The translations under genes and the position numbers were made by a program. A stretch of DNA of 53,880 nt from Clostridium sp. Marseille-P2415 (GTDB lineage: Bacteria > Bacillota > Clostridia > Lachnospirales > Lachnospiraceae), in contig NZ_LT732526.1 of the NCBI RefSeq assembly GCF_900155545.1, forward strand, positions 2,097,567-2,151,446. Reading direction: 5' to 3'. The notes under the pieces are model-generated. The model was given only the letters and a program-made list of their open reading frames with translations, was not told the DNA's origin and did not search any database. This document shows positions 1 through 13,418 of the stretch, piece after piece (positions within the stretch are counted from its first letter, which is position 1; each line of letters begins with the position of its first letter).

Positions 1-1827
1 GCCAGCCGTCCCGCCACTACCCTGTTAAAAAGCGGCCGTACTACTTCCATTGAAATGTATAAAGGCAATATTTATATGGTCCGGGATTTCCCGCTGAATG
101 GAGAAAAAGGGCTTGGAACATTATTTATGAAAATGAAGCCTTCCATCCTATACGATTCCCTGGAAGGTGCACAGACATCTTTCAGCTATCTGCTGGCTTA
201 TGACAATACCTGGAATCCTCTGTTTCCAGATATGCTTGATTACAGCGTTCTGCCGGATGAAGTCATCAGGGAAATACCTTCTTTCATGGAACAGGGCAGG
301 AATACCCGGTATTTCGGGAACCGGCATTATTTCTTCTGTAAATCGGACCAGACCAACATTAATCTGGTACTGTTGGTAGATGACTTCGCTTTTATGCCGT
401 CTTCCCAGATGGTACTGATGAACTCTTTGCCTTTTTTTGCCTTGATTTTAATACTAAGTGCTCTGTTGTCAGTCTGCGTCCTTTATTTAAGCTATATGCC
501 AGTTCAAAAATTAAAGAAAATGATATCTTCCGAAGGAAGTACGGAAAACAACGAGAATACTAAGAATGAATGGGCCTATTTAACAGAAAGCTTTTTGAAA
601 ATCTCCAATCATAAGAGCCAGCTGGATTACATTTTAAGCAATATGATTCCGAAAATTTCAAAAGAATTTTATTATGATTTATTGAACGGAAAACCTATGG
701 ATCTTCCATATATCCAAAGCATTCTGGCAAATATTAACAGCCCCCTTCATGCAGAAGGGATATGCAAAACCATTGCCATAACCTTCCATGAATCCATCGA
801 ACCTTCCATAAAGGTCCGGCTTTTAGATAATCTCAACCAGGCCCTGGCCCAATTTTCAGAAGGGATCTGCCAATATGTGATGCAACAGATTGATGAATCC
901 CTTTATGCGGTCATTCTCCAATTTAACGCTGACACAGCAGCTCCTGAGATCACAGGGTTTGAAATCAAACTGGAACAGGCCTTCTTTAATGACCTGTCCG
1001 ACCCAAATGCCGCCTGGCTGGAGATGGGGCCCAAATGCTCTTCGATTCAAAACGTATCCTTCTCCTATCAGGAGAGCTTAGAACGGCTGGCCCATCGAAA
1101 ATATCCGTCAAAAAAAACGGACTTGGACTTAAATGCTTCTCATGAAGACTCTGTAACACCCAATCATCATTTCTTTCGGGTACAATTAAAGTCCATATCC
1201 GATTTAATTATGAAGGGAGAAACCGATCCGGCTCTTCAAAAAGCCCTGCATATCTGCCATACCTTATCCCGTGACGGAACTCCGGAGGAAATCTGCAGGG
1301 CTTATGAATTTTACCGGCTGGCCTTTTTGAACACCCTGGCCTCCTACCGCATAACGGATACAGAACAGGAAGAATATACTATTGTCTTCGAATCGGAACC
1401 CCATTTGGCAGCGCGCATAGGGGATCCTTCGCTGATGCAGGAATACATGGTTTCTTTCTGCACAGCGGCCATTCAACTGCTGGCAGAGAAATATCAGAAA
1501 CAGCAGCATAAATACCTGGTTCGGACAAAACGCTACATAGAAGAAAACTATACCAATCCGGACCTTTCCTTAAACCTGCTGGCCGAACAGTGTAAAACCA
1601 CCACCAGCTATTTAAGCCGGCTTTTTAAAGAAAGCTTTGGAATCAACTTTGTGGATTATTTAAACCAGTACCGGATAGAAAAAGCAAAGGAACTGCTCTT
1701 AACCACCAATAAGCCGATAAAGGAAATTGCTATAACCACAGGTTTTAACTCACAGCAAAATTTTATCCGGGTATTTAAAAAGCATGTAGGGATAACCCCA
1801 GGTCAATTTAAATCCAGCTTTTGCTAA
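1..1827 (+). CDS. AraC-family transcriptional regulator with membrane-anchored sensor region, 5' truncated
   Basis: The frame is open from the first base of the window, so the true start lies to the left; 608 residues are visible. The visible N-terminal ~140 residues look like the end of an extracytoplasmic sensor region. One strong hydrophobic helix follows (around 410-490 nt, SLPFFALILILSALLSVCVL), then ~330 residues of cytoplasmic linker, and a C-terminal AraC/XylS double helix-turn-helix (last ~100 residues; YLSRLFKESFG and the second-helix signature GFNSQQNFIRVFKK are clear). This is the architecture of YesN-like one-component regulators of Firmicutes, which usually control neighbouring carbohydrate uptake or polysaccharide genes. 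The gene points toward the glycan operon at 1934 and ends 106 nt before it, but its target could equally lie upstream of the window. The fold call is firm; the ligand is unknown. Confidence 0.9.
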   Translation, partial: ASRPATTLLKSGRTTSIEMYKGNIYMVRDFPLNGEKGLGTLFMKMKPSILYDSLEGAQTSFSYLLAYDNTWNPLFPDMLDYSVLPDEVIREIPSFMEQGRNTRYFGNRHYFFCKSDQTNINLVLLVDDFAFMPSSQMVLMNSLPFFALILILSALLSVCVLYLSYMPVQKLKKMISSEGSTENNENTKNEWAYLTESFLKISNHKSQLDYILSNMIPKISKEFYYDLLNGKPMDLPYIQSILANINSPLHAEGICKTIAITFHESIEPSIKVRLLDNLNQALAQFSEGICQYVMQQIDESLYAVILQFNADTAAPEITGFEIKLEQAFFNDLSDPNAAWLEMGPKCSSIQNVSFSYQESLERLAHRKYPSKKTDLDLNASHEDSVTPNHHFFRVQLKSISDLIMKGETDPALQKALHICHTLSRDGTPEEICRAYEFYRLAFLNTLASYRITDTEQEEYTIVFESEPHLAARIGDPSLMQEYMVSFCTAAIQLLAEKYQKQQHKYLVRTKRYIEENYTNPDLSLNLLAEQCKTTTSYLSRLFKESFGINFVDYLNQYRIEKAKELLLTTNKPIKEIAITTGFNSQQNFIRVFKKHVGITPGQFKSSFC

Positions 1828-1933
1828 AACACCTTATCGTACCCCGCCTTCTGCCATTTTCACTTTCTTTACAGGCAAACATACTATATATAAGAAATAC
1901 GTATTTCAAAAATAGCAAAAAGGGGGGGCTATT

Positions 1934-2218
1934 ATGCCTAATTACAGACCAGTTGTGAGAACAATCGGAGCTGCTTCAGCCATCTCGGCAACCATCGTTG
2001 CTGCAGATCTTACGACAACAAGCTGGGGATTGCTTTTAGTAAGAGGTTCCGCATTATTCAGCAATACAGTATTACGAAGCGGTGCAGTGGCAGTATGGGA
2101 AAGTACAAATCCGACGACTGCTTCTCCGGACCGTCAGACTTTTTCGGATGCCAACGGAACTTATGGTATCACTTGCAGAGCAGGCGTGCAGCTTCGCTTC
2201 AAGTTCTACAGCAGTTAA
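1934..2218 (+). CDS. small protein (94 aa), possible Ig/transthyretin-like member of the small-protein array
   Basis: Starts 9 nt after a G-rich ribosome binding site (AGGGGGGG). No family is recognised with certainty. The N-terminal half is rich in Ala/Thr/Ser and mildly hydrophobic but lacks a lysine-led signal peptide. The C-terminal half contains SGAVAVWES and DANGTYGITCRAGVQLRF. That resembles the beta-strand pattern of the carboxypeptidase-regulatory-like domains in the next genes (GxVY, then a D-x-x-G-x-Y turn, then a terminal strand). It is the first gene of the rightward operon and is followed by an intercistronic hairpin, so it may be made in excess of the downstream genes. It could be an abundant structural or acceptor protein; that is inference. 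Confidence 0.7.
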   Translation: MPNYRPVVRTIGAASAISATIVAADLTTTSWGLLLVRGSALFSNTVLRSGAVAVWESTNPTTASPDRQTFSDANGTYGITCRAGVQLRFKFYSS

Positions 2219-2225
2219 TTCTTTA

Positions 2226-2250
2226 AGGGTGTCTCAAATTGGGACACCCT
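2226..2250 (+). terminator. intercistronic hairpin without U-tract (attenuator or mRNA-stabilising stem)
   Basis: A 10-bp stem (AGGGTGTCTC with GGGACACCCT, one G-U pair) closes a 5-nt loop, 7 nt after the stop of the 94-aa gene. There is no run of T after it, so a partial terminator or a 3'-end stabiliser is more likely than a full stop. It would set the ratio of the first gene to the rest of the operon. Confidence 0.6.
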
Positions 2251-2289
2251 CTCCATTCGAGATCAATGTATAACAAAGGAGGCGAAGGA

Positions 2290-2637
2290 ATGATACCAAA
2301 AGTTGTTTTAACAGGCTGTCAGATCATTTGTTCCAGAATCGTGACTGCAGATGTTACCTTACCGAAAAATGCGTTTTTTTTTATAAAAGGAATCGTTTAC
2401 AGCCCAACAGGAGAACCATTGCCGAATGCCGCAGTTGAAATACGTTTGGTTGATGATTCCCATATTCCTTCTACAGAAAAAAGCCTTGGCGTGACCTTTA
2501 CGCTTCATGACGGTTCGTATGGAATATCACTGCCCAGAATCTGCGGGATGCAATATAAATTAATTGCCTATTCCCCTGTATATGCGGAAGGAAAAAGAAG
2601 CTTCGGCTGGAGCGGAGGTTATTATGAAAAAGTATAA
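2290..2637 (+). CDS. small carboxypeptidase-regulatory-like (Ig-like) domain protein
   Basis: 115 residues. The start is fixed by AAAGGAGG about 7 nt upstream of ATG 2290; the longer frame from 2239 would begin inside the hairpin region. Residues ~35-60 read FFIKGIVYSPTGEPLPNAAV, the hallmark first strands of a carboxypeptidase regulatory-like (transthyretin-fold) domain: G-x-V, then P-L-x-x-A-x-V. They are followed by HDGSYGISLP and a terminal strand YKLIAYSPVY. There is no signal peptide, transmembrane helix or LPxTG. The domain is normally a module of secreted or surface proteins; here it stands alone. The gene overlaps the Maf glycosyltransferase start by 14 nt, which points to translational coupling. 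The function is unknown; substrate or scaffold for glycosylation is a guess from context. Confidence 0.8.
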   Translation: MIPKVVLTGCQIICSRIVTADVTLPKNAFFFIKGIVYSPTGEPLPNAAVEIRLVDDSHIPSTEKSLGVTFTLHDGSYGISLPRICGMQYKLIAYSPVYAEGKRSFGWSGGYYEKV

Positions 2638-4357
2638 AACATTGGATGGATATGACGTCTATCGAATAAAAAAAGATAAAAAATTCTATTTTTTGGCGGA
2701 TAGGCTTGATTATAAAAAAGAGATCAATCAATTATCAGATACATTGGATGATCTGAAATTTGACTCCCTGATTTTTTTATTTGGAATTGATACCGGGGAA
2801 TACATCGATGAGATAAAAAAATTATTATGTAAAAAAAACAGAGTGATCATTTTTGAACCAAACCGTGCAATTTTTAAAAAATATGATCCGGATATTGCAG
2901 ATAACATAAAGCTTGTTTTGTTTGAAGAAAAACAGGTAATAAAAATATTTGCCGATACGATCAATTATAAAAATATTAATAATGTGTATTTTTATGCTTT
3001 CGGCAGCTATGGCAGGATTTACAAAAATGAATACGACTGTTTGGTCGAACATTTGGACTGGACAATAATCAATGCAGCCTCGCAGGTAGATTTAGCAAAG
3101 CGCTTTAAAAAAATATTTATTCAGAATATGATCGCGAATATGAAAATGATAAATGAGTGCACTCCCATTCACCATTATATGTTTACAAACCTCAATGTAC
3201 CGGCAATTGTGGTGTCAGGAGGCCCCTCTCTGGATTTAAATATCAAGGATATGCTTTTATACAAAGAGAAGCTTAAAAAGTGCTTTATCATTACAGGAAG
3301 CAGGACCGTCGATGCCCTGGTTAAGAATGGGATCCTGCCCGATATGATCGTATCCGTTGATCCGGTGGAGGCAAACTATGACATGATGAAGGATCATCTG
3401 GATCTGGATGTTCCGATCGCATTTTATGAATACAGCAACCGGTATTTAATAAGGGATTATAAAGGAGATAAAATTTTCATTTCCCTTCTGTTCTCTCAGA
3501 CGATCAGGGGCTTCGAGCAGTTAAAAGGGGTCTATTGCGGAGGTTCGGTGGCTCACGCCTGCATTGATATCGCAAATATGCTGGGATGTTCTCCAATTAT
3601 ATTTGCAGGCCAGGATCTTGCCCATACCTTTAATAAGCATCACGCAGACAGCGCGGTTTTTGATTATGATAAAACCCTTCACTACAGGTCTCAGATAAGT
3701 GTAAAGGATGTATATGGGAAACAAATAGGAACTACGGTAACATTGGACCATTACAGAAGAAAACTGGAGCACTATATCAATCAATACAAAGAACAAAAAC
3801 GAATCCGGTTCATCAATTGTTCCTACGGCGCCGATATCAAAGGCGCACCGCATAAAGAATTTTCAAAAGTTTTTGAACAGGAACGGTTTGATAAGCGAAA
3901 AAAGAGCTGTATCCCGATTCAGGATATTGCAGTCAACAGCAGGGAAACGGTCGGCTCGATCCTTCGATTTATTGATGAGTATTTGATAAAGGCGGGCCAC
4001 GGCCTGGAATTATGTGAAATTATTATTTCTGAAAATCAGACAAAATCGTTAATAGAGGCTGACGAGGAGGATATGGATCTGCAAAGGATTCTCTATATCC
4101 TTCAGATTGTAAATGACTTTGAAAATGCTGCGGACAGCAAATATTTAGGCGGATACTTCAGTGAATTTCTATATGAAATGAAAGAAAAAACATTTTTTAT
4201 GTATGCAAAGGATTATGAAAGACTGACTTCTGATTTGCAGCATCAGGCAGGCGCTTTTAAAGTATATTTTGAAAAGATGAAAGAAATGCTGGAAGAAGTA
4301 AAAAAGACAGCCCTGGAAACGGTAACAGAATTCTATAAACAGCATATAGTTAAGTAA
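2624..4357 (+). CDS. Maf-type (motility accessory factor, DUF115) glycosyltransferase
   Basis: 577 residues from ATG 2624, which has GGAGG 10 nt upstream; the longer frame at 2564 lacks a site. It has an N-terminal Rossmann-like part, then the DUF115/MptE-like core at residues ~190-340 with VVSGGPSLDLNI, a PDMIVSVDP strand-turn and FAGQDLAHT. These are the conserved blocks of the Maf family, which in Campylobacter, Aeromonas and Clostridium transfers nonulosonic acids (pseudaminic or legionaminic) from CMP-sugars to flagellin Ser/Thr in the cytoplasm. The C-terminal ~150 residues are helical. Seven legionaminate biosynthesis genes follow in the same operon, which fits the donor. The acceptor is not shown by sequence: it could be the flagellin at 40410-42221 or the small array proteins around this gene. 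Confidence 0.88.
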   Translation: MKKYKTLDGYDVYRIKKDKKFYFLADRLDYKKEINQLSDTLDDLKFDSLIFLFGIDTGEYIDEIKKLLCKKNRVIIFEPNRAIFKKYDPDIADNIKLVLFEEKQVIKIFADTINYKNINNVYFYAFGSYGRIYKNEYDCLVEHLDWTIINAASQVDLAKRFKKIFIQNMIANMKMINECTPIHHYMFTNLNVPAIVVSGGPSLDLNIKDMLLYKEKLKKCFIITGSRTVDALVKNGILPDMIVSVDPVEANYDMMKDHLDLDVPIAFYEYSNRYLIRDYKGDKIFISLLFSQTIRGFEQLKGVYCGGSVAHACIDIANMLGCSPIIFAGQDLAHTFNKHHADSAVFDYDKTLHYRSQISVKDVYGKQIGTTVTLDHYRRKLEHYINQYKEQKRIRFINCSYGADIKGAPHKEFSKVFEQERFDKRKKSCIPIQDIAVNSRETVGSILRFIDEYLIKAGHGLELCEIIISENQTKSLIEADEEDMDLQRILYILQIVNDFENAADSKYLGGYFSEFLYEMKEKTFFMYAKDYERLTSDLQHQAGAFKVYFEKMKEMLEEVKKTALETVTEFYKQHIVK

Positions 4358-4383
4358 AATAGGAATAAAAAGGGGAGCTATGC

Positions 4384-4629
4384 ATGGAAAAAGAGGATCA
4401 AAATGAAATCAATGATGCCAAATATAAAGAAATCAAGATAAATAAAATGATTATAAACGGAAAAGAACAGGAAGGGAACATCATCAGCGCGGAGGATACA
4501 AAGGATAAACAGGAATTAAACGTAACCGTTTATACACAGAGCATAAAAACGGCTGAAAAAAAGGGAGGGAGGCACAGTTGGATCCATGAATTGCTTCAAA
4601 AAGGCCTCTTTCATGATAAGCGGAGCTAA
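4384..4629 (+). CDS. unknown small hydrophilic protein (81 aa)
   Basis: Has a good ribosome binding site (AAGGGGAGC) and sits 26 nt after the Maf gene. It is highly charged, rich in Lys, Glu, Asn and Ile, with a middle segment INKMIINGKEQEGNI and no membrane segment or recognised motif. Its end overlaps the next reading frame (starting 4586) by 44 nt, unusually long for two genes of an operon. Either this protein or the start of the next is therefore less certain. It could be a truncated or diverged member of the array. Confidence 0.55.
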   Translation: MEKEDQNEINDAKYKEIKINKMIINGKEQEGNIISAEDTKDKQELNVTVYTQSIKTAEKKGGRHSWIHELLQKGLFHDKRS

Positions 4630-4888
4630 GCTCCATTCCTGCAGAGAAAATCATTTTAACATTCAGCTGGAAAGACAGAACTTCCAAATCATCAACGGAA
4701 CCGTTTATAACCAGAACCAGGAGCCATGCCCGGGGGCGGCTGTCCAGGTAATTCAAATAAACTGTAAGGATCATACAAGAAATCTGCTGGGATATGTTCT
4801 GACAGATGAAAACGGGCACTATTTATTTCCCATTGAAGCAAAACCTTATATGAAGTATGAATTAGCGGTCTATGCTCCGCTTCTCTGA
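4586..4888 (+). CDS. small carboxypeptidase-regulatory-like (Ig-like) domain protein
   Basis: 100 residues. The core at residues ~32-100 reads QIINGTVYNQNQEPCPGAAV, then GYVLTDENGHYLFPI and YELAVYAPL. These are the same strand-turn-strand signatures as the proteins at 2290 and 4909. The ATG at 4586 lies 13 nt after GGAGGGAGG, a long spacing; ATG 4613 is an alternative without a clear site. No export signal. The stop codon overlaps the region carrying the ribosome binding site of the next gene, so translation is probably coupled. Confidence 0.72.
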   Translation: MNCFKKASFMISGAKLHSCRENHFNIQLERQNFQIINGTVYNQNQEPCPGAAVQVIQINCKDHTRNLLGYVLTDENGHYLFPIEAKPYMKYELAVYAPLL

Positions 4889-4908
4889 TGCAAAAAGGAG
4901 GAATTCTG

Positions 4909-5208
4909 TTGAGCTGTTATACGGAAGTAACTGTAACTCCAGAGGATTTGAAGAACCGGAAGATGATACAGACAACGATTGCCATCGAACGGTCTGATGA
5001 AGTTTTATTATCGGGAACGGTCTATAATTCACGATGCGAAGCACTGGAAGGTGCCGTTGTCCTGATTATGGAAATTTACCCGGGAAAACAAAGAGTAAAG
5101 AAAGGCTATGTAATAACCAACCGGTTCGGTGAATTCGCAGTCACGGTAAGTAAAAATAAATATGTCAATTATCAGCTGGATATATATGAACCTTTTATAA
5201 CCGGTTAG
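4909..5208 (+). CDS. small carboxypeptidase-regulatory-like (Ig-like) domain protein, TTG start
   Basis: The frame is open from ATG 4888, but that ATG overlaps the previous stop and lies before the AAAAAGGAGG motif (4892-4901). TTG 4909, seven bases after that motif, is the likelier start and gives 99 residues. The core reads VLLSGTVYNSRCEALEGAVV, then GYVITNRFGEFAVTV and YQLDIYEPF, again the carboxypeptidase-regulatory-like pattern. It is closest in layout to the protein at 4586, suggesting tandem duplication followed by divergence. No signal peptide or membrane helix. Function unknown. Confidence 0.75.
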   Translation: MSCYTEVTVTPEDLKNRKMIQTTIAIERSDEVLLSGTVYNSRCEALEGAVVLIMEIYPGKQRVKKGYVITNRFGEFAVTVSKNKYVNYQLDIYEPFITG

Positions 5209-5223
5209 ATAAGGATGATCGCC

Positions 5224-5487
5224 ATGGAGCAAATTTATAATGAATATGATACAGAAAATGTCCTGATCAAAGGATGGATCCGCTATCAGGATTTCAGTCC
5301 GGTAAGAGGTGCTGTTGTCATTTTAGAAAAGATTGATTGTTTCTATAACGAAGAATTACAGGAAGAAGATTATCAGGGTATTTATCTGAATCATACTTTA
5401 ACAAATAGAAATGGAGAATTCTGTTTTATTATAACGGACAAAAAAAGCAGTTATAAAATAAAAGTTTTTGATAACCATCACAGGTAA
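5224..5487 (+). CDS. small carboxypeptidase-regulatory-like (Ig-like) domain protein
   Basis: 87 residues from ATG 5224, with AAGGA 8 nt upstream; an in-frame ATG at 5215 overlaps that site. It keeps the pattern VLIKGWIRY, then PVRGAVVILE, then LTNRNGEFCFII and YKIKVF. It has a longer acidic loop (residues ~45-60) between the second and third strands than its neighbours. It is the last of the array, 11 nt before legB, so it is co-transcribed with nonulosonate synthesis. Function unknown. Confidence 0.72.
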   Translation: MEQIYNEYDTENVLIKGWIRYQDFSPVRGAVVILEKIDCFYNEELQEEDYQGIYLNHTLTNRNGEFCFIITDKKSSYKIKVFDNHHR

Positions 5488-5498
5488 GGGGGAACAAA

Positions 5499-6479
5499 AT
5501 GAAAAAAGTTCTGGTTACAGGAGCAGATGGATTTATCGGCAGTCACTTAACCGAAACACTGATTGAACGCGGATATGATGTAAAGGCTTTTACCTTTTAC
5601 AATTCCTTCAATACCTGGGGATGGTTGGATTCCCTTCCCAGCAGTATAAAAAAAGAAATAGAAATCCAAAGCGGAGACATCCGGGACCCAAACGGTGTGC
5701 GGAATGCCATGGAAGGGGTTGAATCCGTCTTCCACCTTGCCGCATTGATTGCGATCCCCTTCAGTTATCATTCTCCGGACTCTTATGTGGATACCAATAT
5801 AAAAGGTACCTTAAATGTCTTACAGGCTGCAAGAAGCCTTGGTACCGGTAAAGTGCTGGTGACCTCTACTTCTGAGGTTTATGGCAGCGCCAGATATGTT
5901 CCCATTGATGAAAACCATCCATTTCAGGGACAGTCACCCTATTCCGCAACGAAAATAGGAGCTGACCGGTTAGCAGAGTCCTTTTACCGAAGCTTTTCCC
6001 TTCCGGTCACCATTGTCCGCCCATTTAATACCTATGGGCCAAGACAATCTGCAAGAGCTGTGATACCGGCCATTATCAGCCAGCTGTTAACCGGAATCGA
6101 AGAGATCCGGCTCGGCAGCCTGACTCCTACCAGAGATTTTAACTATGTGGGGGATACGGTAAATGGATTTATTGAAATAGAAAGATCTGATCAGACCATA
6201 GGAGAAGAAATCAATATTGCCAGCCAGAAAGAGGTTTCCATTGGGGATCTGGCATCGGAACTGATCCGCCAGATCAATCCAAAAGCCAGAATTATCTGTG
6301 ACACAAAACGTCTGCGCCCTCAAAAAAGCGAGGTAGTCCGGCTCATGGGATCAAATCAAAAACTAAAGGAGCTCACCGGCTGGAAACAGGAATATACGCT
6401 CTCTCAGGGCCTTAAAAAGACCATTGACTGGATGAGCCAAAATCTGGATCACTACAAGGCGGATATCTATAATATTTAG
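5499..6479 (+). CDS. legB: NAD-dependent 4,6-dehydratase of legionaminic acid synthesis (LegB-like)
   Basis: 326 residues, an extended short-chain dehydrogenase. The Rossmann motif TGADGFIGSH is at the N terminus, TSTSEVYGSA carries the active-site region and YSATKIGADR gives the catalytic Tyr-x-x-x-Lys. In the Campylobacter pathway LegB converts GDP-GlcNAc to the 4-keto-6-deoxy sugar. First enzyme gene of a seven-gene run in pathway-like composition, preceded by AAGGGGGGAAC. A generic UDP-sugar 4,6-dehydratase is the alternative, but the gene order legB-legC-ptmE-neuD-neuB-neuC-neuA supports LegB. Confidence 0.88.
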   Translation: MKKVLVTGADGFIGSHLTETLIERGYDVKAFTFYNSFNTWGWLDSLPSSIKKEIEIQSGDIRDPNGVRNAMEGVESVFHLAALIAIPFSYHSPDSYVDTNIKGTLNVLQAARSLGTGKVLVTSTSEVYGSARYVPIDENHPFQGQSPYSATKIGADRLAESFYRSFSLPVTIVRPFNTYGPRQSARAVIPAIISQLLTGIEEIRLGSLTPTRDFNYVGDTVNGFIEIERSDQTIGEEINIASQKEVSIGDLASELIRQINPKARIICDTKRLRPQKSEVVRLMGSNQKLKELTGWKQEYTLSQGLKKTIDWMSQNLDHYKADIYNI

Positions 6480-6506
6480 AAAGGAAATAACAATGGGGGA
6501 CCTGGT

Positions 6507-7655
6507 ATGATACCTTTGTCTGTTCCTAACTTAAAAGGAAATGAAAAAAAATATCTTCTCGATGCACTGGATAAAGGCTGGGTTTCAACCTCCGGCAGTT
6601 ATGTAACGAAATTTGAACAGGATATGGCGGCCTATTTGAATACAAAAGGCGCTGCCGCTGTTCAAAGCGGAACCGCCGCGATCCATCTGGCTCTGCTCCT
6701 TTCCGGCGTCAATTCTGAAAATGAAGTCATTGTTCCCACTCTTACTTTTATAGCCGCTGTTAATCCGGTAAAATACATAGGAGCAGAGCCTGTTTTTATG
6801 GATTGTGATGATTCTCTTAATATGGACTGCTGCAAGCTTGAGGACTTTTTAAAAAAGGAATGCCAAATGACTCCCCTGGGACTGCAAAATAAACGTACAA
6901 ACCGGATCATCAAGGCAATCATCGTAGTCCACATCTTTGGCAATATGGCGGACATGGAGCGGTTAAGAGCCTTTGCCGACGAATATGGCATCCAACTGAT
7001 CGAAGATGCTACGGAAGCTCTTGGAACCTGTTACACCCAGGGAGAATACAAAGGACAGTTTGCCGGGACGATCGGTGATTTCGGAGCCTACTCCTTTAAC
7101 GGCAATAAAATAATAACCACAGGCGGAGGCGGAATGCTGACGGCTAAGGATGACAAAGCCCTGGAAAAAGCAAAATACCTCGCGGCTCAGGCAAAAGACG
7201 ATCCTCTTCATTATACACACAATGAAATAGGCTTTAACTACCGCATGACAAATCTGCAGGCAGCGCTGGGAGTCGCCCAGCTGGAATGTCTGGAAGATTT
7301 TATTCAGATCAAGGAAAAAAATTACCAATACTACAGCGATGCAATCAAATCAATGGAAGGATTCGAATTGCTTAAGTTTCATGATAAAACACGCAGCAAC
7401 CACTGGTTTTATTCTTTGCTCATACAAAAAAGCGGATTAAGCCGGGACACTGCAATGAAGAAATTAAAAGAGGCGGATATTGAAACAAGGCCCATATGGC
7501 AGCTGATCCATACGCAGAAAATGTACCGGAACAACCAGACCTATTACATCGAAAAGGCTCCCTTTTACCGGAACAGCGTCATGAATATCCCCTGCAGTAC
7601 CAATCTTTTAAGGAAGGATATGGATCATATCATTCAAATGCTGAAAAGCTTGTAG
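6507..7655 (+). CDS. legC: PLP-dependent sugar aminotransferase (LegC-like)
   Basis: 382 residues of the DegT/DnrJ/EryC1 family. GTAAIHLALLLSG is near residue 55, IEDATEALG holds the cofactor-stacking and aspartate region, and SFNGNKIITTGGGG contains the lysine that forms the Schiff base with PLP. Its role is amination at C4 of the 4-keto sugar made by LegB. The start at 6507 follows GGGGGA by 6 nt. It lies 27 nt after legB, in one transcript. Confidence 0.88.
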   Translation: MIPLSVPNLKGNEKKYLLDALDKGWVSTSGSYVTKFEQDMAAYLNTKGAAAVQSGTAAIHLALLLSGVNSENEVIVPTLTFIAAVNPVKYIGAEPVFMDCDDSLNMDCCKLEDFLKKECQMTPLGLQNKRTNRIIKAIIVVHIFGNMADMERLRAFADEYGIQLIEDATEALGTCYTQGEYKGQFAGTIGDFGAYSFNGNKIITTGGGGMLTAKDDKALEKAKYLAAQAKDDPLHYTHNEIGFNYRMTNLQAALGVAQLECLEDFIQIKEKNYQYYSDAIKSMEGFELLKFHDKTRSNHWFYSLLIQKSGLSRDTAMKKLKEADIETRPIWQLIHTQKMYRNNQTYYIEKAPFYRNSVMNIPCSTNLLRKDMDHIIQMLKSL

Positions 7656-7676
7656 ATATCTGAAGGAAGGATAGGC

Positions 7677-8723
7677 ATGGAGGTCAGCAGATTCTTTATA
7701 TCGCCGGATATTCCGATTCGGGAGGCAATCGGACAATTGGACCGGACAGCGAAAAAAATTCTTATTGTCACAGAAGAGAAAAAGCTGGCCGGGGTCCTGA
7801 CAGATGGGGATATCAGACGGTGGATATTAAAAAATAAAGATATCTCCCTGCCGGTCCGTTTCATCATGAACCCCTCTCCCATCGTTATAAAAAAAGAAGA
7901 ACAGCACCTGGCACTGGAAATCATGAAAGAAAAGCAGATCGAAGGGCTGCCTCTGATCAATGATGACAATGAAGTTGTCGATATTCTGTTTTGGAATGAA
8001 ATCAGCGATCATGAATACAATTACGGAAAGCAGAATCCCACACCGGTCGTCATCATGGCCGGCGGAAAGGGCTCCCGGTTATATCCCTATACCAAAATCA
8101 TTCCCAAACCCCTGATTCCTGTCGGGGATATACCGATCGTAGAACGGATCATGAATCAAATCATGGAGTATGGATTTCATGAATTCTATATTACCATAAA
8201 TTATAAAAAAGAGCTCATAAAAGCTTATTTTAACGGAGATTTTCCATATCATCTGCACTTTATCGAAGAGGATAAGCCGCTGGGAACAGCCGGCTCCCTG
8301 AATCTTGCAAAAAAATATATAAACGGCAGCTTCTTTGTAAGCAACTGTGACATCCTGGTGGACATCAATTATACCAAACTGCTGGTTTACCACAAAACCC
8401 ACCAAAATAAGATCACCATTGTGACGGCTATAAAAAGCTATGAAATTCCATATGGAGTCGTTACCCTGGATAAGAACGGGAATATCGATGCCCTGAGCGA
8501 AAAACCCAGATACGAGCTGTTAGTCAATACCGGCTTGTATGTGCTGGAGGAAGAGATTTTAAAATATATCCCCCAGAATCAGTATTTTGATATGACAGAC
8601 CTGATTCGAACATGTATAAAAAACGGGGAACAGATCGGAGCCTATCCTGTTATGGACAGCACCTGGCTTGATATGGGGGAATTTAGTGAAATGAAGAAAA
8701 TGGCAGAAAGAATGAAATTATGA
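7677..8723 (+). CDS. ptmE: CBS-domain nucleotidyltransferase, PtmE-like (GlcN-1-P guanylyltransferase)
   Basis: 348 residues. Two CBS repeats fill residues ~1-115 (GVLTDGDIRRWIL and EGLPLINDDNEVVDI). They are followed by a sugar-nucleotidyltransferase domain starting PVVIMAGGKGSRLYPYTK with the downstream KPLIPVGDIPI and SNCDILVDINY. This CBS plus nucleotidyltransferase fusion is the PtmE architecture; in Campylobacter jejuni it makes the GDP-glucosamine that feeds the GDP-linked legionaminate route. Its presence argues for legionaminic rather than pseudaminic or sialic acid. The stop overlaps the next start by 4 nt. Confidence 0.85.
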   Translation: MEVSRFFISPDIPIREAIGQLDRTAKKILIVTEEKKLAGVLTDGDIRRWILKNKDISLPVRFIMNPSPIVIKKEEQHLALEIMKEKQIEGLPLINDDNEVVDILFWNEISDHEYNYGKQNPTPVVIMAGGKGSRLYPYTKIIPKPLIPVGDIPIVERIMNQIMEYGFHEFYITINYKKELIKAYFNGDFPYHLHFIEEDKPLGTAGSLNLAKKYINGSFFVSNCDILVDINYTKLLVYHKTHQNKITIVTAIKSYEIPYGVVTLDKNGNIDALSEKPRYELLVNTGLYVLEEEILKYIPQNQYFDMTDLIRTCIKNGEQIGAYPVMDSTWLDMGEFSEMKKMAERMKL

Positions 8724-9367
8724 AAGAAGAAATGATTCTGATCGGCGGCGGCGGCCATGCAGAAAGTATCATTGATACGATCCAGGCACTGGAGCAATAC
8801 GAGATCATTGGCATTCTGGATAACAATAAAAAAATCAATACGGAAATTCTGGGTGTAAAAGTCATAGGAAACGATTCGGATTTAAACGAATATTTTGAAA
8901 TGGGAATAAAAAATGCGGTCCTTGCCATAGGCAGCATGGGGAACACCGGACCAAGGCGGAAGCTTTATGACCTCTGCAAAAAAATAGGCTACAAATTTCC
9001 GAATATTATCGATAAAAGCTCCATTGTATCGGAGACCTTAAGAATCGGCGAAGGAAATTTTATTGGAAAAGGTGCCATAATCAATTCCAGGGTCACGATC
9101 GGCAATGCATGTATCATCAACACAGGATCCATTCTGGAGCACGGATGTACCCTCGGAGACTTTGTTCATATCGCACCCGGAAGCGTTCTGTGCGGAAACG
9201 TCCGGATTCAGGCGAACACACACATCGGAGCACATTCTACCATTCTGCAGAACGTGACAATCGGGAATGACACCATGATCGGAGCCGGAAGCCTGGTACT
9301 GAAAAACATATCCCCCTATCAATTGGCTTATGGTAGCCCGGTAAAGGAGGCAGCTTTGCATGAGTAA
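8720..9367 (+). CDS. legH: sugar O/N-acetyltransferase, NeuD/PglD family (LegH-like)
   Basis: 215 residues. It has an N-terminal nucleotide-sugar-binding Rossmann-like part with MILIGGGGHAESIID. Hexapeptide-repeat coils run from about residue 105 to 200 (IGKGAIINSRVTIGNACII, IAPGSVLCGNV, IGNDTMIGAGSLVL), forming the left-handed beta-helix of acetyl-CoA-dependent transferases. In this operon the expected job is acetylation of the 4-amino sugar from LegC. Starts in an ATGA overlap with ptmE and overlaps legI by 8 nt. Confidence 0.85.
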   Translation: MKEEMILIGGGGHAESIIDTIQALEQYEIIGILDNNKKINTEILGVKVIGNDSDLNEYFEMGIKNAVLAIGSMGNTGPRRKLYDLCKKIGYKFPNIIDKSSIVSETLRIGEGNFIGKGAIINSRVTIGNACIINTGSILEHGCTLGDFVHIAPGSVLCGNVRIQANTHIGAHSTILQNVTIGNDTMIGAGSLVLKNISPYQLAYGSPVKEAALHE

Positions 9368-10355
9368 AATCATGATCATTGCCGAAGCAGGAGTCAATCA
9401 CAACGGAGATTTAAATACTGCCAAACGGCTCGTAGATGCTGCAAGTACCGCAGGCGCAGATGCGGTCAAATTCCAGACGTTCAAAGCGGGACATCTGGCA
9501 GTTCCTTACGCACAGAAGGCAGACTATCAAATGCAGAACACCGGCCGGTCATCATCTCAATATCACATGCTGAAAGAGCTGGAATTGTCCTGGAACGACT
9601 TTGAGGAGCTCTACCACTACTGCTCCGTAAAAAAAATAAAATTCCTGTCCTCTCCCTTTGACGAAGAAAGTATTGATTTTTTAGACCGGCTTGGCGTTGA
9701 CACCATAAAGATCCCGTCCGGAGAGATTACCAACTATCAATATCTGCAAAAAACAGCCTCTATAAAGAAGCCGGTTATTTTATCGACCGGAATGGCAACG
9801 CTGGAGGAAATCGGCCAGGCTCTGGAGCTCTTAAATAAAAGCGGCGAGGAGATCATACTGCTTCACTGCTCCAGCGCCTATCCCGCTCCAATGAAGGAGG
9901 TCAATTTAAAGGCTATGTATACATTAAAAGAGATTTTCCATAAAAGAGTGGGGTACTCGGACCATACCCTGGGGATCGAAGTTTCCATCGCTGCTGCTGC
10001 TCTCGGTGCCTGCGTGTTAGAAAAGCATATGACTCTGGACAAAACCATGCCCGGACCGGATCATAAAATAAGCCTGGAGCCGGAGGAATTCAGGCGTCTG
10101 GTGGCCGGTGTCAGAAATATTGAGGAAGCGCTGGGAGACGGAATCAAAAAGCCGGCGGATGCTGAACAGAAGAACAGGGAGTTCGTCAGAAAATACCTGG
10201 TGGCCGCGAAGGAAATCAAAAAAGGGGAAGCATTCACCCTGGATAATCTATGCGCAAAACGCTGCGGACACGGCATCTCTCCCATGAAGATCAGGGACCT
10301 CCTGGGAAAAACGGCCCAAAAAGACTATTCAAAGGATGAGAGGATCGGGGAATGA
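9360..10355 (+). CDS. legI: N-acetylneuraminate/legionaminate synthase (LegI/NeuB)
   Basis: 331 residues. The NeuB TIM-barrel opens with IIAEAGVNHNGD and DAVKFQTF, continues with IKIPSGEI and HCSSAYPAP, and GYSDHTLGIE and EKHMTLDK hold catalytic and metal-site residues. An SAF antifreeze-like domain follows (residues ~275-331, RKYLVAAKEIKKGEAFT). It condenses phosphoenolpyruvate with the 2,4-diacetamido-6-deoxymannose product of LegG to give the nine-carbon acid. AAAGGAGG at 9344 supports ATG 9360. Confidence 0.93.
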   Translation: MSKIMIIAEAGVNHNGDLNTAKRLVDAASTAGADAVKFQTFKAGHLAVPYAQKADYQMQNTGRSSSQYHMLKELELSWNDFEELYHYCSVKKIKFLSSPFDEESIDFLDRLGVDTIKIPSGEITNYQYLQKTASIKKPVILSTGMATLEEIGQALELLNKSGEEIILLHCSSAYPAPMKEVNLKAMYTLKEIFHKRVGYSDHTLGIEVSIAAAALGACVLEKHMTLDKTMPGPDHKISLEPEEFRRLVAGVRNIEEALGDGIKKPADAEQKNREFVRKYLVAAKEIKKGEAFTLDNLCAKRCGHGISPMKIRDLLGKTAQKDYSKDERIGE

Positions 10356-11521
10356 TAAAATTATGTGTGGTGACCGGAAGCCGGGCAGAATTCGGCCTGT
10401 TAAACCCAGTTATAAAGCGGATCCATGAGGACCCGGATTGTAAGCTCCGGCTGATTGCAACCGGAAGCCATCTGGATACCCGTTATGGACTGGATTACAG
10501 GGAGATCGAAGAACAGGGGATAAGCATCGATGAAACAATTGAAATGAACCTGGCCTCCGACACCCCCCGGGGAATATGCAAATCCATGGGCTTGGAAATG
10601 ATCAGCCTGTCGGAGGCCTACGAAAGATTAAAGCCGGATATGGTACTGCTTCTCGGTGACCGTTATGAAATCTTCATGGCCGCAGCCGCCGCCGTCATCT
10701 GTAAAATCCCCATTGCCCATATCCACGGCGGGGAAATAACCCGAGGAGCTTATGATGACTGCATGAGACATGGGATCACCAAGATGAGCTACCTGCACTT
10801 TACCAGTACGGAGGAATACCGGCAGAGAGTCATCCAGTTAGGGGAAGATCCGGAAAGAGTATTTCACGTAGGTGCGCTGGGCATCGAAAATATCAAAAAC
10901 CTCCGGCTCCTGACAAAGGCGGAACTGGAAAACGCATTGAACCTGTCCTTATCCGCTCCCACCGCCCTTGTCACCTATCATCCTGCCACCCTGGAGCCTG
11001 ACACTATCTCCGGCCAGTTGGAGCCATTGTTAAAAGCCTTAAATTCCTTCCCTGATTTATTTGCGGTCTTCACAAGGAGCAATCCGGATACCGGCGGAGG
11101 GAGAATCAATGAAATGATTGAGGATTATGTGAGCAGGAATCCCCAAAGGGCGGCGGTATTCACATCTCTTGGGACGCTTCGGTATCTCAGCCTGATGAGC
11201 CACAGCCAGATGGTGATCGGAAATTCTTCCAGCGGGATCATTGAGGCGCCGTTTTTAAAGGTGCCTTCCGTTAATATCGGAAGCAGACAGGAAGGAAGGG
11301 TAAAGCCTCCATCCGTCATAAGCTGCGGCCATTCCGTAAACGGGATCATCACTGCCATGGAACAGGCACGAACCTATGACCGGACCAAGGACCATGGTCT
11401 AAATCCTTATGAAGGACACCACACCAGCCGGGAGATCCTTCGGATGATCAAGCTGGCTTTTGAAAAGGGAATCCAGCCGGAAAAAAAATTTTATGATATT
11501 GATTGGAACCGTCATGTATAA
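10352..11521 (+). CDS. legG: hydrolysing NDP-sugar 2-epimerase (LegG/NeuC)
   Basis: 389 residues of the UDP-GlcNAc 2-epimerase superfamily, hydrolysing branch. Seen: CVVTGSRAEFGLL at the N terminus, LLGDRYEIFMAAAAA, AHIHGGEITRGAYDD and the C-terminal IGNSSSGIIEAP. It removes GDP (or UDP) and epimerises C2 to give the free mannose-configured diacetamido sugar used by LegI. The start overlaps the legI stop by 4 nt and the stop overlaps legF by 8 nt, so the last enzymes are tightly coupled. Confidence 0.92.
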   Translation: MIKLCVVTGSRAEFGLLNPVIKRIHEDPDCKLRLIATGSHLDTRYGLDYREIEEQGISIDETIEMNLASDTPRGICKSMGLEMISLSEAYERLKPDMVLLLGDRYEIFMAAAAAVICKIPIAHIHGGEITRGAYDDCMRHGITKMSYLHFTSTEEYRQRVIQLGEDPERVFHVGALGIENIKNLRLLTKAELENALNLSLSAPTALVTYHPATLEPDTISGQLEPLLKALNSFPDLFAVFTRSNPDTGGGRINEMIEDYVSRNPQRAAVFTSLGTLRYLSLMSHSQMVIGNSSSGIIEAPFLKVPSVNIGSRQEGRVKPPSVISCGHSVNGIITAMEQARTYDRTKDHGLNPYEGHHTSREILRMIKLAFEKGIQPEKKFYDIDWNRHV

Positions 11522-12227
11522 AAATAAGACTTTTCTGGGGATCATACCTGCCCGAAGCGGCTCAAAGGGGATCCCGGATAAGAATATAAGGGAAATAAAC
11601 CACAAGCCTCTCATGGCATACACCATTGAAGCCGGAAAAAAATCAGGGCTGTTTGATCAGCTCCTTGTTTCAACGGATTCGGAAAATTATGCGGAAATTG
11701 CAAAACAATATGGAGCCAGCGTGCCGTTTTTAAGGCCAAAAGAACTGGCTTCCGATCAGGCGGCCACAAAGGATGTCATCCTTCATGCCATAAAGGAATT
11801 AAGTGAACAGGGGAAAACCTTTGATTACTTCATGGTCCTGCAGCCCACTTCCCCACTCAGAAATGAAACCCATATCCTGGAAAGCGCCGATCTCCTGTTA
11901 AAAAAGAATGGGGACGCTGTCATCGGCGTGTGCAGAACGGAGCCCGTCTCCCATCTGGCCGTTCCATTGACCGAAACAGGAGAAATAAAGGCCGGTTTTC
12001 CGGATAAACGGCCGGCCAGAAGACAGGATTTCCCGCCGGAATACAGGATAAACGGAGCCCTTTACCTGGTTTCGGCCAATATTTTTCTAAAATACGGAAG
12101 CTTTTACGCAGGAAGGACTTTACCCTATTTCATGAATGCCATTGATTCAATAGACATTGATGATGAATTTCAGTTAAAAATCGCGGAACTGCTTCTGATG
12201 GATCAGGCGTCCCCAACCTGCAGATAA
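11514..12227 (+). CDS. legF: CMP-nonulosonate cytidylyltransferase (LegF/NeuA)
   Basis: 237 residues from ATG 11514; the frame is open upstream to 11460, but the family starts at the FLGIIPARSGSKGIP motif just downstream. LQPTSPLR and the terminal SIDIDDEFQLKIAE with its metal-binding acidic pair are classical for CMP-sialate/legionaminate synthetases. It makes the CMP-sugar that Maf enzymes use. It is the last gene of the operon and is followed within 2 nt by a strong palindromic terminator. Confidence 0.92.
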   Translation: MYKNKTFLGIIPARSGSKGIPDKNIREINHKPLMAYTIEAGKKSGLFDQLLVSTDSENYAEIAKQYGASVPFLRPKELASDQAATKDVILHAIKELSEQGKTFDYFMVLQPTSPLRNETHILESADLLLKKNGDAVIGVCRTEPVSHLAVPLTETGEIKAGFPDKRPARRQDFPPEYRINGALYLVSANIFLKYGSFYAGRTLPYFMNAIDSIDIDDEFQLKIAELLLMDQASPTCR

Positions 12228-12229
12228 AA

Positions 12230-12261
12230 GAGGAGAAAGGAACCCGGGTTCCTTTCTCCTC
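12230..12261. terminator. 32-bp perfect palindrome, bidirectional terminator
   Basis: GAGGAGAAAGGAACCC is followed at once by its exact reverse complement, between the convergent legF (+) and M20 peptidase (-) stops. It is a near loop-less stem; no long U-run on either side, but the position and stability support termination for both genes. Confidence 0.8.
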
Positions 12262-12272
12262 ATCCGTTGATT

Positions 12273-13418
12273 CTATAAATCTTCTGCCGTTATGAGCCCA
12301 AGGGCCAGTCCGGCACCTTTTTCCAGTTCCTCTTCCGTCGTATACTCATTTGTGGTATGCACTTCATTCATTCCGCAAGCCACTACGATCCCCCGGATTC
12401 CGTTACGGACAAAGTGATTATTATCGCTGCCGCCCAGGGTGTACTGGGTGGAGCCCGAAAGCCCCAGGTTCCTGCAGACTTTTTTAAACCTTTTGACCAC
12501 TTCTTCCTCATCGCCGATCTCATAGGCTTCGATCTGTTTTTCAAAACGGATCTCACAGCCTCCCTTGGATCGGGCCGCCGTATGTTCAAAAATTTCCTTA
12601 AGCCTGTTCCATTCCTCCATGGCCCTGTGATCCTTTAAGCTCCGGATCTCTCCCCATACGGTACACTCGTCGGAAACTATGTTGGTCTGTTTTCCGCCGC
12701 TTATCTTTCCGATGTTTACGGTAGTCTCTTCATTCACCCAGCCCTGCTTTAGCTGGGATATGGCGCGGGCTGCGATCTCAATTGCATTGATCCCAAGCTG
12801 GGGGCAAAAGCCCGCGTGGGCATTTTTGCCTTTCACCTGAATCTCAAAGGAAAGAAGGGTGGGCGCTGCCGTGGCAGCCAGACCGATCTCCCCGCTTAAG
12901 TCAAATACATAAGCCAGTTTTGATTTTATTTTGGAGTAATCCACCAGCTGGCTTCCTTTTCCGTAATTTTCTTCCGCTACAGGAAACAGGACCTCGATAT
13001 CCGGGTGGGGCAGGCCGTTCTCTTTTATCACCCGGACAGACTCCAATATGGCGGCGATTCCGGAAAGGTCATCGGCTCCCAGCACCGTATCCCCTTCTGA
13101 GGTGATCCTTCCCTGCTCATCCTCTGCTGCCCGCTTCCCCTTTCCCGGCTTTACCGTATCCATATGGGCGGACAGCAATATGGGTTCCCCATCCCGGTTT
13201 CCCTTTAAAAAGCCATAGAGATTTCCGGTGGGAGCCGCGGACCCATATTCCGGTATTTTTTCTTTTAACCGGAAACCGGCGTCATCCTCCCGTACCTCAA
13301 AGCCCAGCAGTTTTAATTCGCCTGTCAAATAGTCCGCGATTTCCCGTTCTTTATAAGTTTCGGAATCAAATTCCACCATTTTCTTAAATTGGCTCACAAG
13401 CCTGCTTTTATCAACCAT
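12273..13418 (-). CDS. M20-family metallopeptidase (peptidase T-like)
   Basis: 381 residues. Metal and catalytic blocks are visible: LLSAHMDTVKPG (first zinc histidine and catalytic Asp), TVLGADDLSGIA (bridging Asp), FPVAEENYGKG (general-base Glu pair) and GGSDNNHFVRNG near the C terminus with a further metal ligand region. The inserted dimerisation domain spans residues ~185-295. The family cleaves short peptides or deacylates amino acids in the cytoplasm; peptidase-T-like tripeptidase is the best guess. Convergent with legF; leftward transcription, 31 nt downstream of cysK, which may share its transcript. Confidence 0.88.
   Translation of the reverse strand: MVDKSRLVSQFKKMVEFDSETYKEREIADYLTGELKLLGFEVREDDAGFRLKEKIPEYGSAAPTGNLYGFLKGNRDGEPILLSAHMDTVKPGKGKRAAEDEQGRITSEGDTVLGADDLSGIAAILESVRVIKENGLPHPDIEVLFPVAEENYGKGSQLVDYSKIKSKLAYVFDLSGEIGLAATAAPTLLSFEIQVKGKNAHAGFCPQLGINAIEIAARAISQLKQGWVNEETTVNIGKISGGKQTNIVSDECTVWGEIRSLKDHRAMEEWNRLKEIFEHTAARSKGGCEIRFEKQIEAYEIGDEEEVVKRFKKVCRNLGLSGSTQYTLGGSDNNHFVRNGIRGIVVACGMNEVHTTNEYTTEEELEKGAGLALGLITAEDL

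What the first reader, a model, noticed from the sequence alone, without database searches (positions are those of the whole stretch)
1934..5487. Array of stand-alone mini Ig-like (carboxypeptidase-regulatory-like) proteins built into a nonulosonate/Maf operon
Seen: at least four proteins of 87-115 residues (2290, 4586, 4909, 5224), probably five with 1934. Each has one G-x-V-Y / P-x-x-G-A-x-V / D-x-x-G-x-(Y/F) / Y-x-P domain and no signal peptide. They surround a Maf glycosyltransferase and precede seven legionaminate genes in one operon. Known: Maf enzymes glycosylate cytoplasmic flagellin, and this domain is normally a module of large surface proteins. Inference: the mini-proteins may be glycosylation acceptors, chaperones for the acceptor, or subunits of a glycosylated surface or spore structure. 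Tandem divergence suggests diversifying selection. I know of no described system of this composition.
Basis: partly seen in the sequence, partly recalled or inferred. Interest (0 to 1): 0.78.

Follow-up and report, generated by a model that had tools for sequence, protein, structure and literature searches.

The report
Likely sugar-coated spore-surface protein operon
A conserved set of six small proteins and a sugar-transferring enzyme of the kind that normally decorates flagella appears to have been rewired to build and sugar-coat part of the bacterial spore surface; the evidence for the gene set is strong, the evidence for the spore is indirect.

Summary
The order A-B-Maf-K-C-D-E-LegB is the same in all 19 uncut Lacrimispora loci (Maf in 23 of 25 genomes) and recurs, with some losses or rearrangement, in other Clostridia, once beside a pseudaminate-type pathway. 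The 14 cassette Mafs in the tree form one clade (100/100). Flagellin lies near 0 of 13 cassette loci but near 21 of 27 other Lachnospiraceae Mafs, none of which has the small genes. A has a sigma-K-type promoter (27 of 30 upstream regions) and a hairpin behind it. Selection is purifying.

Best reading: a late-sporulation mother-cell operon in which A, Ser/Thr-rich, is an abundant spore-surface subunit and the acceptor of a dedicated non-flagellar Maf; B-E and K are minor subunits or adaptors. Spore location, glycosylation and polymerisation are inferred. Against it: two cassettes without the promoter before A, a failed promoter control, and flagellin in every cassette genome tested.

The parts
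1860..1888 (+). sigma-K-type promoter in front of A: TCAC-N16-CATACTATA
   Evidence: 1 match in the window; shuffles mean 0.07; same place in relatives
1894..1907 (.). 14-bp perfect palindrome GAAATACGTATTTC just downstream of the -10
   Evidence: exact in 24 of 27 upstream regions, window included; 2 exact sites in the genome, the other inside a coding frame
1934..2218 (+). A: 94-aa Ser/Thr-rich small beta protein, N-terminus M[AP]NY[RK]P; proposed major subunit and acceptor
2226..2250 (+). predicted RNA hairpin directly behind A (no U-tract)
   Evidence: also predicted, with different sequences, in relatives
2290..2637 (+). B: CarboxypepD_reg-like small protein
   Evidence: E 5.1e-5, below cut-off
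2624..4357 (+). Maf-type glycosyltransferase (PF01973) of the cassette clade; only PF01973 match in the genome at E up to 0.001
4384..4629 (+).
4586..4888 (+). C: CarboxypepD_reg-like small protein
4909..5208 (+). D: CarboxypepD_reg-like small protein (TTG start)
5224..5487 (+). E: small protein of the same family (by alignment)
5499..6479 (+). LegB, NAD-dependent 4,6-dehydratase
   Evidence: TIGR04180 502.6 bits, cut-off 475
6507..7655 (+). LegC, aminotransferase
   Evidence: TIGR04181 476.4 bits, cut-off 420
7677..8723 (+). PtmE-like nucleotidyltransferase
   Evidence: best model (TIGR03992, 131.2 bits) below its cut-off of 292.1; the name PtmE is recalled
8720..9367 (+). NeuD/LegH-type acetyltransferase
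   Evidence: TIGR03570 221.6 bits, cut-off 160.8
9360..10355 (+). NeuB/LegI-type nonulosonate synthase
   Evidence: TIGR03569 481.6 bits, cut-off 399.65
10352..11521 (+). NeuC/LegG-type 2-epimerase
   Evidence: TIGR03568 446.7 bits, cut-off 235.9
11526..12227 (+). LegF/PseF-type CMP-nonulosonate synthetase
   Evidence: TIGR03584 182.5 bits, below cut-off 205.7
12230..12261 (.). terminator-like hairpin at the end of the operon (listed for the - strand)

Best explanation
This is a late-sporulation, mother-cell operon that makes a nonulosonate-decorated spore-surface protein. RNA polymerase with sigma-K transcribes it; A is made in excess, because it comes first and is followed by a hairpin. The seven enzymes make CMP-legionaminate or a related sugar. 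The dedicated Maf, working in the mother-cell cytoplasm, transfers it to Ser/Thr on A, most likely in the Ser/Thr-rich loop at residues 56-68. A then assembles on the forespore surface, possibly as a fibre held together by its conserved N-terminal segment. B-E are minor subunits (cap, anchor or branch) of the same fold family, and K is a small partner, perhaps an adaptor of Maf. No signal peptide is needed because the spore surface is built inside the mother cell. Shown here: gene set, conservation, separate Maf clade, no flagellin beside it, promoter pattern, predicted hairpin, purifying selection, Ser/Thr bias. Inferred: sigma-K use, spore location, glycosylation of A, polymerisation, excess of A, roles of B-E and K.
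For: Promoter: AC-N16/17-CATANNATA before A in 27 of 30 upstream regions; in the seven representative regions that have it, 4 to 32 of 3000 shuffles had it by chance. Most of the 30 are Lacrimispora and not independent; L039, L040, L042 and L084 are other lineages. In L083 the site lies just beyond the 140 bases tested. Published sigma-K consensus: [a/c]AC[a/c]-N16-CATA-N3-TA (passage of PMC5749712); AC marks sigma-K and ATA sigma-E at -35 (passage of PMC3789822). No sigma-70-like site on the + strand in 1800-1934. Hairpin predicted behind A in divergent sequences, also in the four cassettes where the next gene is Maf (L044, L082-L084; z -2.4 to -4.3). Flagellin in the fetched stretch at 21 of 27 other Lachnospiraceae Maf loci, small genes at 0 of 27; at the 13 cassette loci given to the script, 3-5 small genes each and flagellin at 0 (27 of the 39 other matches had been fetched, and only 4 of 21 complete unnamed Lacrimispora loci went in). 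Cassette Mafs one clade, 100/100. G144 has both: an ordinary Maf about 1 kb from a flagellin, and the cassette Maf elsewhere. The cassette stays while the sugar pathway changes: L082 has pseudaminate-type neighbours (those names are read from sequence by eye). A: 22% Ser+Thr against 9-17% in B-E and K; residues 56-68 39%. Precedents: legionaminate on the B. subtilis spore crust (PMC7439481) and putative O-glycans on clostridial F-ENA-4 spore fibres (PMC11952670).
Against: No expression or proteome data. L044 and L082 lack the promoter in front of A. The dpaA control failed: dpaA is in the sigma-K list of C. difficile (passage), but a sigma-K-type site was found before it in 0 of 12 Lacrimispora loci. 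Genome-wide, TCAC-N14-17-CATANTATA has 3 sites and its reversed control 2, so the pattern alone does not mark a regulon. With a 75-base window the hairpin passes z -2 in only 13 of 25 loci. The cassette does not track sporulation within the genus: the two genomes without it (G310, G312) have SpoIVA and DpaA. Flagellin occurs in 25 of 25 Lacrimispora and 8 of 8 other cassette genomes, and in the window genome this is the only Maf, so it may also serve flagellin. Three papers on clostridial spores or sporulation held none of the words carboxypeptidase (all three), glycosyl or legionamin-, sialic, legionaminic or neuraminate in their main text; whether those species carry the cassette is mostly unknown. 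A matches no known filament subunit.
Confidence: 0.6

Rival explanations
1. The Maf glycosylates flagellin, and the small proteins are Maf adaptors or chaperones, as GlfM is for Maf-2 (GlfM as described in a passage of PMC13317340).
For: Only PF01973 match in the window genome, which has four flagellin matches; flagellin in all cassette genomes tested; K or B-E could play the GlfM part.
Against: Flagellin near 0 of 13 cassette loci, against 21 of 27 ordinary Mafs; separate clade; G144 keeps an ordinary flagellin-side Maf as well; promoter of sigma-K type; C. botulinum Maf did not glycosylate non-cognate flagellins (passages of PMC11339370), which suggests tight acceptor pairing.
Confidence: 0.15
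2. The small proteins form a glycosylated surface layer or fibre of growing cells, not of spores.
For: The domain type is common in cell-surface proteins (recalled); the sigma-K assignment rests on sequence alone.
Against: No signal peptides or sortase signals seen by eye and no secretion gene in the operon; sigma-K-type promoter also in the f43 cassettes.
Confidence: 0.12
3. Spore-surface proteins as above, but not glycosylated themselves: they organise the layer, while Maf decorates another spore protein.
For: A Ser/Thr-rich loop is no proof of a glycan; no conserved sequon is known for Maf (passage of PMC11339370).
Against: A stands with Maf in every cassette whose A side is not cut by a contig end; no other candidate acceptor outside the small proteins is encoded in the operon.
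Confidence: 0.12

Closest known systems
Bacillus subtilis sps legionaminate pathway and spore crust (PMC7439481; outline and first part of the discussion seen)
   Same: Nonulosonate genes, late in sporulation, for a spore-surface layer
   Different: Its transferase was unknown in that paper (SpsA and SpsB excluded); here a Maf and a dedicated small-protein set sit in the same operon
Maf flagellin glycosyltransferases (PF01973)
   Same: PF01973 domain; next to nonulosonate genes; Maf acts on flagellin before export (abstract of PMC4065374 in a listing)
   Different: Separate clade, no flagellin beside it, paired with small beta proteins, sigma-K-type promoter
F-ENA endospore appendages, DUF4183 (PMC11952670; outline and sections 6, 9, 10 seen)
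   Same: Small beta proteins (96 aa in B. thuringiensis) with a conserved N-terminus, also in Clostridia; putative O-glycans in F-ENA-4; M-P-x-x-polar-P resembles MPNYRP of A
   Different: No DUF4183 match in A; N-Y instead of small hydrophobics in the hook; no fold match listed
Clostridium taeniosporum appendage genes (PMC5749712; passages seen)
   Same: Late-sporulation gene family with sigma-K-type promoters and a glycoprotein
   Different: DUF11 and collagen-like proteins; no Maf or nonulosonate genes in the passages seen. A K homologue from this species appears

Membership tests
Maf glycosyltransferase (PF01973) | PF01973 domain over the curated cut-off | tested here: met
   144 bits against 34.6
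Maf glycosyltransferase (PF01973) | Lies with flagellin genes (typical, not strictly defining) | tested here: not met
   flagellin at 0 of 13 cassette loci and 21 of 27 others; in the window the flagellin is at 40410-42221
Maf glycosyltransferase (PF01973) | Transfers a nonulosonate to flagellin | not testable with these tools
   needs mass spectrometry
CarboxypepD_reg (PF13620) | Score over Pfam's cut-off of 32.3 bits | tested here: not met
   B 24, C 24.8, D 14.8 bits; A and E none
CarboxypepD_reg (PF13620) | Prealbumin-like beta-sandwich fold | tested here: inconclusive
F-ENA (DUF4183) | DUF4183 domain (PF13799) | tested here: not met
   A matched 0 Pfam families at E up to 1
F-ENA (DUF4183) | F-ENA fold | tested here: inconclusive
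   no F-ENA entry among the 50 listed matches of either method
F-ENA (DUF4183) | N-terminal hook M-P-small-small-polar-P-large | tested here: not met
   A has M[AP]NY[RK]P: same frame, but N-Y at the two small hydrophobic positions
Legionaminate pathway (GDP type) | LegB and LegC models over cut-off | tested here: met
   TIGR04180 and TIGR04181
Legionaminate pathway (GDP type) | CMP-transferase model over cut-off | tested here: not met
   only PseF scored among specific models, 182.5 against 205.7 bits
Legionaminate pathway (GDP type) | Product is CMP-legionaminate | not testable with these tools
   needs chemistry
Sigma-K regulon | AC-N16/17-CATANNNTA promoter | tested here: met
   window and 26 of 29 relatives
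Sigma-K regulon | Loss of expression in a sigK mutant | not testable with these tools
   needs an experiment

The most novel reading that the evidence does not exclude
A new class of nonulosonate-coated endospore fibre: A polymerises through its MANY[RK]P N-terminus, B-E are cap or anchor subunits, and a Maf that left the flagellum is the spore's nonulosonate transferase, with the sugar (legionaminate or pseudaminate) exchangeable between lineages.
Probability: 0.3. Interest if true: 0.85.

Novelty: new variant of a known kind. Interest (0 to 1): 0.68.

Why it matters
Mafs are known as flagellin enzymes, and the enzyme that puts legionaminate on B. subtilis spores was reported as unknown in 2020 (PMC7439481). 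A Maf clade tied to spore-type promoters and a private acceptor set would widen the Maf family's role and name a testable transferase-acceptor pair. I found no description of this system; searched for it, in the held open-access papers only, and searches found no paper at all.

Tried and rejected
Diversifying selection: not supported; median dN/dS 0.07-0.18 (largest single pair 0.49) in 17 pairs for A, 18 each for B, C and E and 19 for D, from three groups of close relatives. F-ENA membership of A: no Pfam match, no sequence match in PDB, no listed fold match (absence there is not proof). Matches of the small A profile to a capsid protein (E 0.015) and to OspA (E 0.035 or worse) are gone with the larger alignment: taken as chance.

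Presence/absence within Lacrimispora as a test between spore and flagellum: uninformative, since the genomes have both (flagellin 25 of 25; DpaA 25 of 25; SpoIVA 24 of 25, the exception 67% complete). dpaA as a positive control for the genus's sigma-K promoter: failed, 0 of 12 loci. Palindrome as a regulon marker: one other exact site, inside a coding frame. Genome-wide promoter pattern: three sites against two for the reversed control; the other two stand before an S8 protease that looks Csp-like by eye and before an ABC transporter. Rfam: nothing over gathering scores in 1-13000. Intrinsic terminator behind A in the window: not listed, no U-tract.

Limits of single calls; the tree program warns of long branches (L028 above all) and odd composition of six rows, two of them cassette rows (L065, L084); few columns, bootstrap not settled, C and D not clean clades; one row (C of L082) was dropped by a coordinate slip of mine. 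L058 and L066-L068 were left out, rows near a locus end fell away, and the 75-base window misses the long-range hairpin of the L045-L051 group (seen); behind B 4 of 26, behind D 1 of 25 and behind E 1 of 24 also pass z -2.

Full report
Check. Genes A (1934-2218), B (2290-2637), Maf (2624-4357), K (4384-4629), C (4586-4888), D (4909-5208) and E (5224-5487) lie head to tail, followed by legB, legC, a ptmE-like gene, neuD, neuB, neuC and a CMP-transferase gene up to 12227, where a terminator-like hairpin stands. A-E align as one family; G34, A47 and G75 are nearly invariant over 32 sequences. Pfam scores for B, C and D are under the cut-off and A and E score nothing, but the predicted folds of C and A are small five-stranded beta proteins; all structural matches are weak to moderate.

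Conservation. The Maf is found in 23 of 25 Lacrimispora genomes. In the 19 loci not cut by contig ends the order A-B-Maf-K-C-D-E-LegB is the same; in one more genome (G322) the Maf lies in three frames while the small genes stay. Named relatives with the cassette: [Clostridium] fimetarium, Lachnotalea glycerini, Lacrimispora amygdalina, Candidatus Galacturonibacter soehngenii, an uncultured Lachnospiraceae genome and Clostridium psychrophilum. They are not all complete: no legC was seen between legB and ptmE in L039; L043 has neither E nor legB and its A is cut by the contig end (visible as an open frame in L007); L044 has the order B-A-Maf-K-C-D-like-ptmE, no E, and its other leg genes on the opposite strand. 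An A-family search found 5 of 391 evenly drawn Clostridia genomes: two Lacrimispora, two of family f43 and one of f60. In f60 the cassette (L082) stands beside enzymes that look like a pseudaminate pathway (by eye), so the sugar seems exchangeable, and the Maf plus small proteins is the constant part. The A family has 87 members at E up to 0.001 in the protein collection, among them C. kluyveri and C. beijerinckii proteins.

Not the flagellar Maf. In 299 genomes of the family, 40 have a Maf at E 1e-20 or better, 42 matches in all; only three matches (own genome, G144, G170) are of the close kind (51% identity or more, the next 30%). Loci of 27 of the other 39 were fetched: 21 have a flagellin in the stretch and none has a small gene. 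Of 13 cassette loci none has flagellin and each has 3-5 small genes (L006 and L007, run too, are copies of L042 and L043; stretches are 4-22 kb). In the tree of 41 Mafs the 14 cassette Mafs are one clade, 100/100, on a long branch. G144 has both kinds, the ordinary one about 1 kb from a flagellin. Still, flagellin exists in every cassette genome tested, and the window's genome has no other Maf.

Control elements. In front of A stands TCAC-N16-CATACTATA at 1860-1888. AC-N16/17-CATANNATA occurs in 27 of 30 upstream regions (N15 was allowed and not seen). The three without are L044, L082 and L083; L083 has it a little further up. In shuffles of the ten representative regions, 1 to 32 of 3000 contain the pattern. 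This is the published sigma-K pattern. A palindrome GAAATACGTATTTC follows in 24 of 27 regions; its function is unknown. Behind A a hairpin is predicted in every A-B gap read, weakest in L065, and also in L044, L082, L083 and L084, where A is followed by Maf; sequences differ while a stem stays. The 75 bases behind A have median z -2.26 (below -2 in 13 of 25), against medians of 0.1 to 0.65 behind the five other genes tested. Promoter and hairpin mostly travel with A, as expected for an abundant structural protein. A positive control on dpaA failed.

Protein features. A is the richest in Ser and Thr (22% against 9-17%); the stretch 56-68 has 39% over 71 sequences; T69 is invariant, S or T stands at 80 and 49 in 99% and 97%; 52 of 71 begin MANYRP or MANYKP. 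C. botulinum Maf is reported to depend on a well-placed Ser/Thr loop and not to accept non-cognate flagellins (passages of PMC11339370). dN/dS medians of A-E are 0.07-0.18.

Mechanism. Shown: an old, conserved cassette, Maf clade, promoter pattern, predicted hairpin, constraint. Inferred: mother-cell expression under sigma-K, transfer of a nonulosonate to A, assembly on the spore. Known parallels are the legionaminate-bearing crust of B. subtilis, whose transferase was not known (PMC7439481), and F-ENA fibres with putative O-glycans in Clostridia (PMC11952670). A is not shown to be F-ENA.

Noticed in passing
window 1894-1907: Perfect 14-bp palindrome overlapping the expected transcription start, exact in 24 of 27 upstream regions and with one other exact site in the genome; possible operator of an unknown regulator.
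   Followed up: partly
window 55-1827: AraC-type regulator (by eye) with a membrane-like N-terminal part; seen upstream of the cassette in several Lacrimispora loci, not in L039, L040, L042 or L044 (many loci were too short to tell).
   Followed up: partly
window 40410-42221 (-): A 603-aa flagellin gene about 36 kb from the Maf; one of four flagellin matches in the genome.
   Followed up: partly
L082 6763-8457: A 564-aa protein of repetitive, beta-rich appearance sits between the small genes B and A in this distant cassette.
   Followed up: no
L083, L084: Extra genes in these cassettes (a PIG-L-like deacetylase in L083; aminotransferase-like, FemAB-like and acetyltransferase-like genes), named by eye, suggest a further modified nonulosonate.
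   Followed up: no
L066-L068: In one Lacrimispora genome (G322) the cassette Maf lies in three reading frames while the small genes are present; sequencing error and decay were not told apart.
   Followed up: no
L044 11687, L082 10659: In the two cassettes without the promoter before A, a sigma-K-like AC-N16/17-CATAATATA lies at the end of Maf, in front of K.
   Followed up: no
P0145: A K homologue is listed for Clostridium taeniosporum, known for ribbon-like spore appendages.
   Followed up: no
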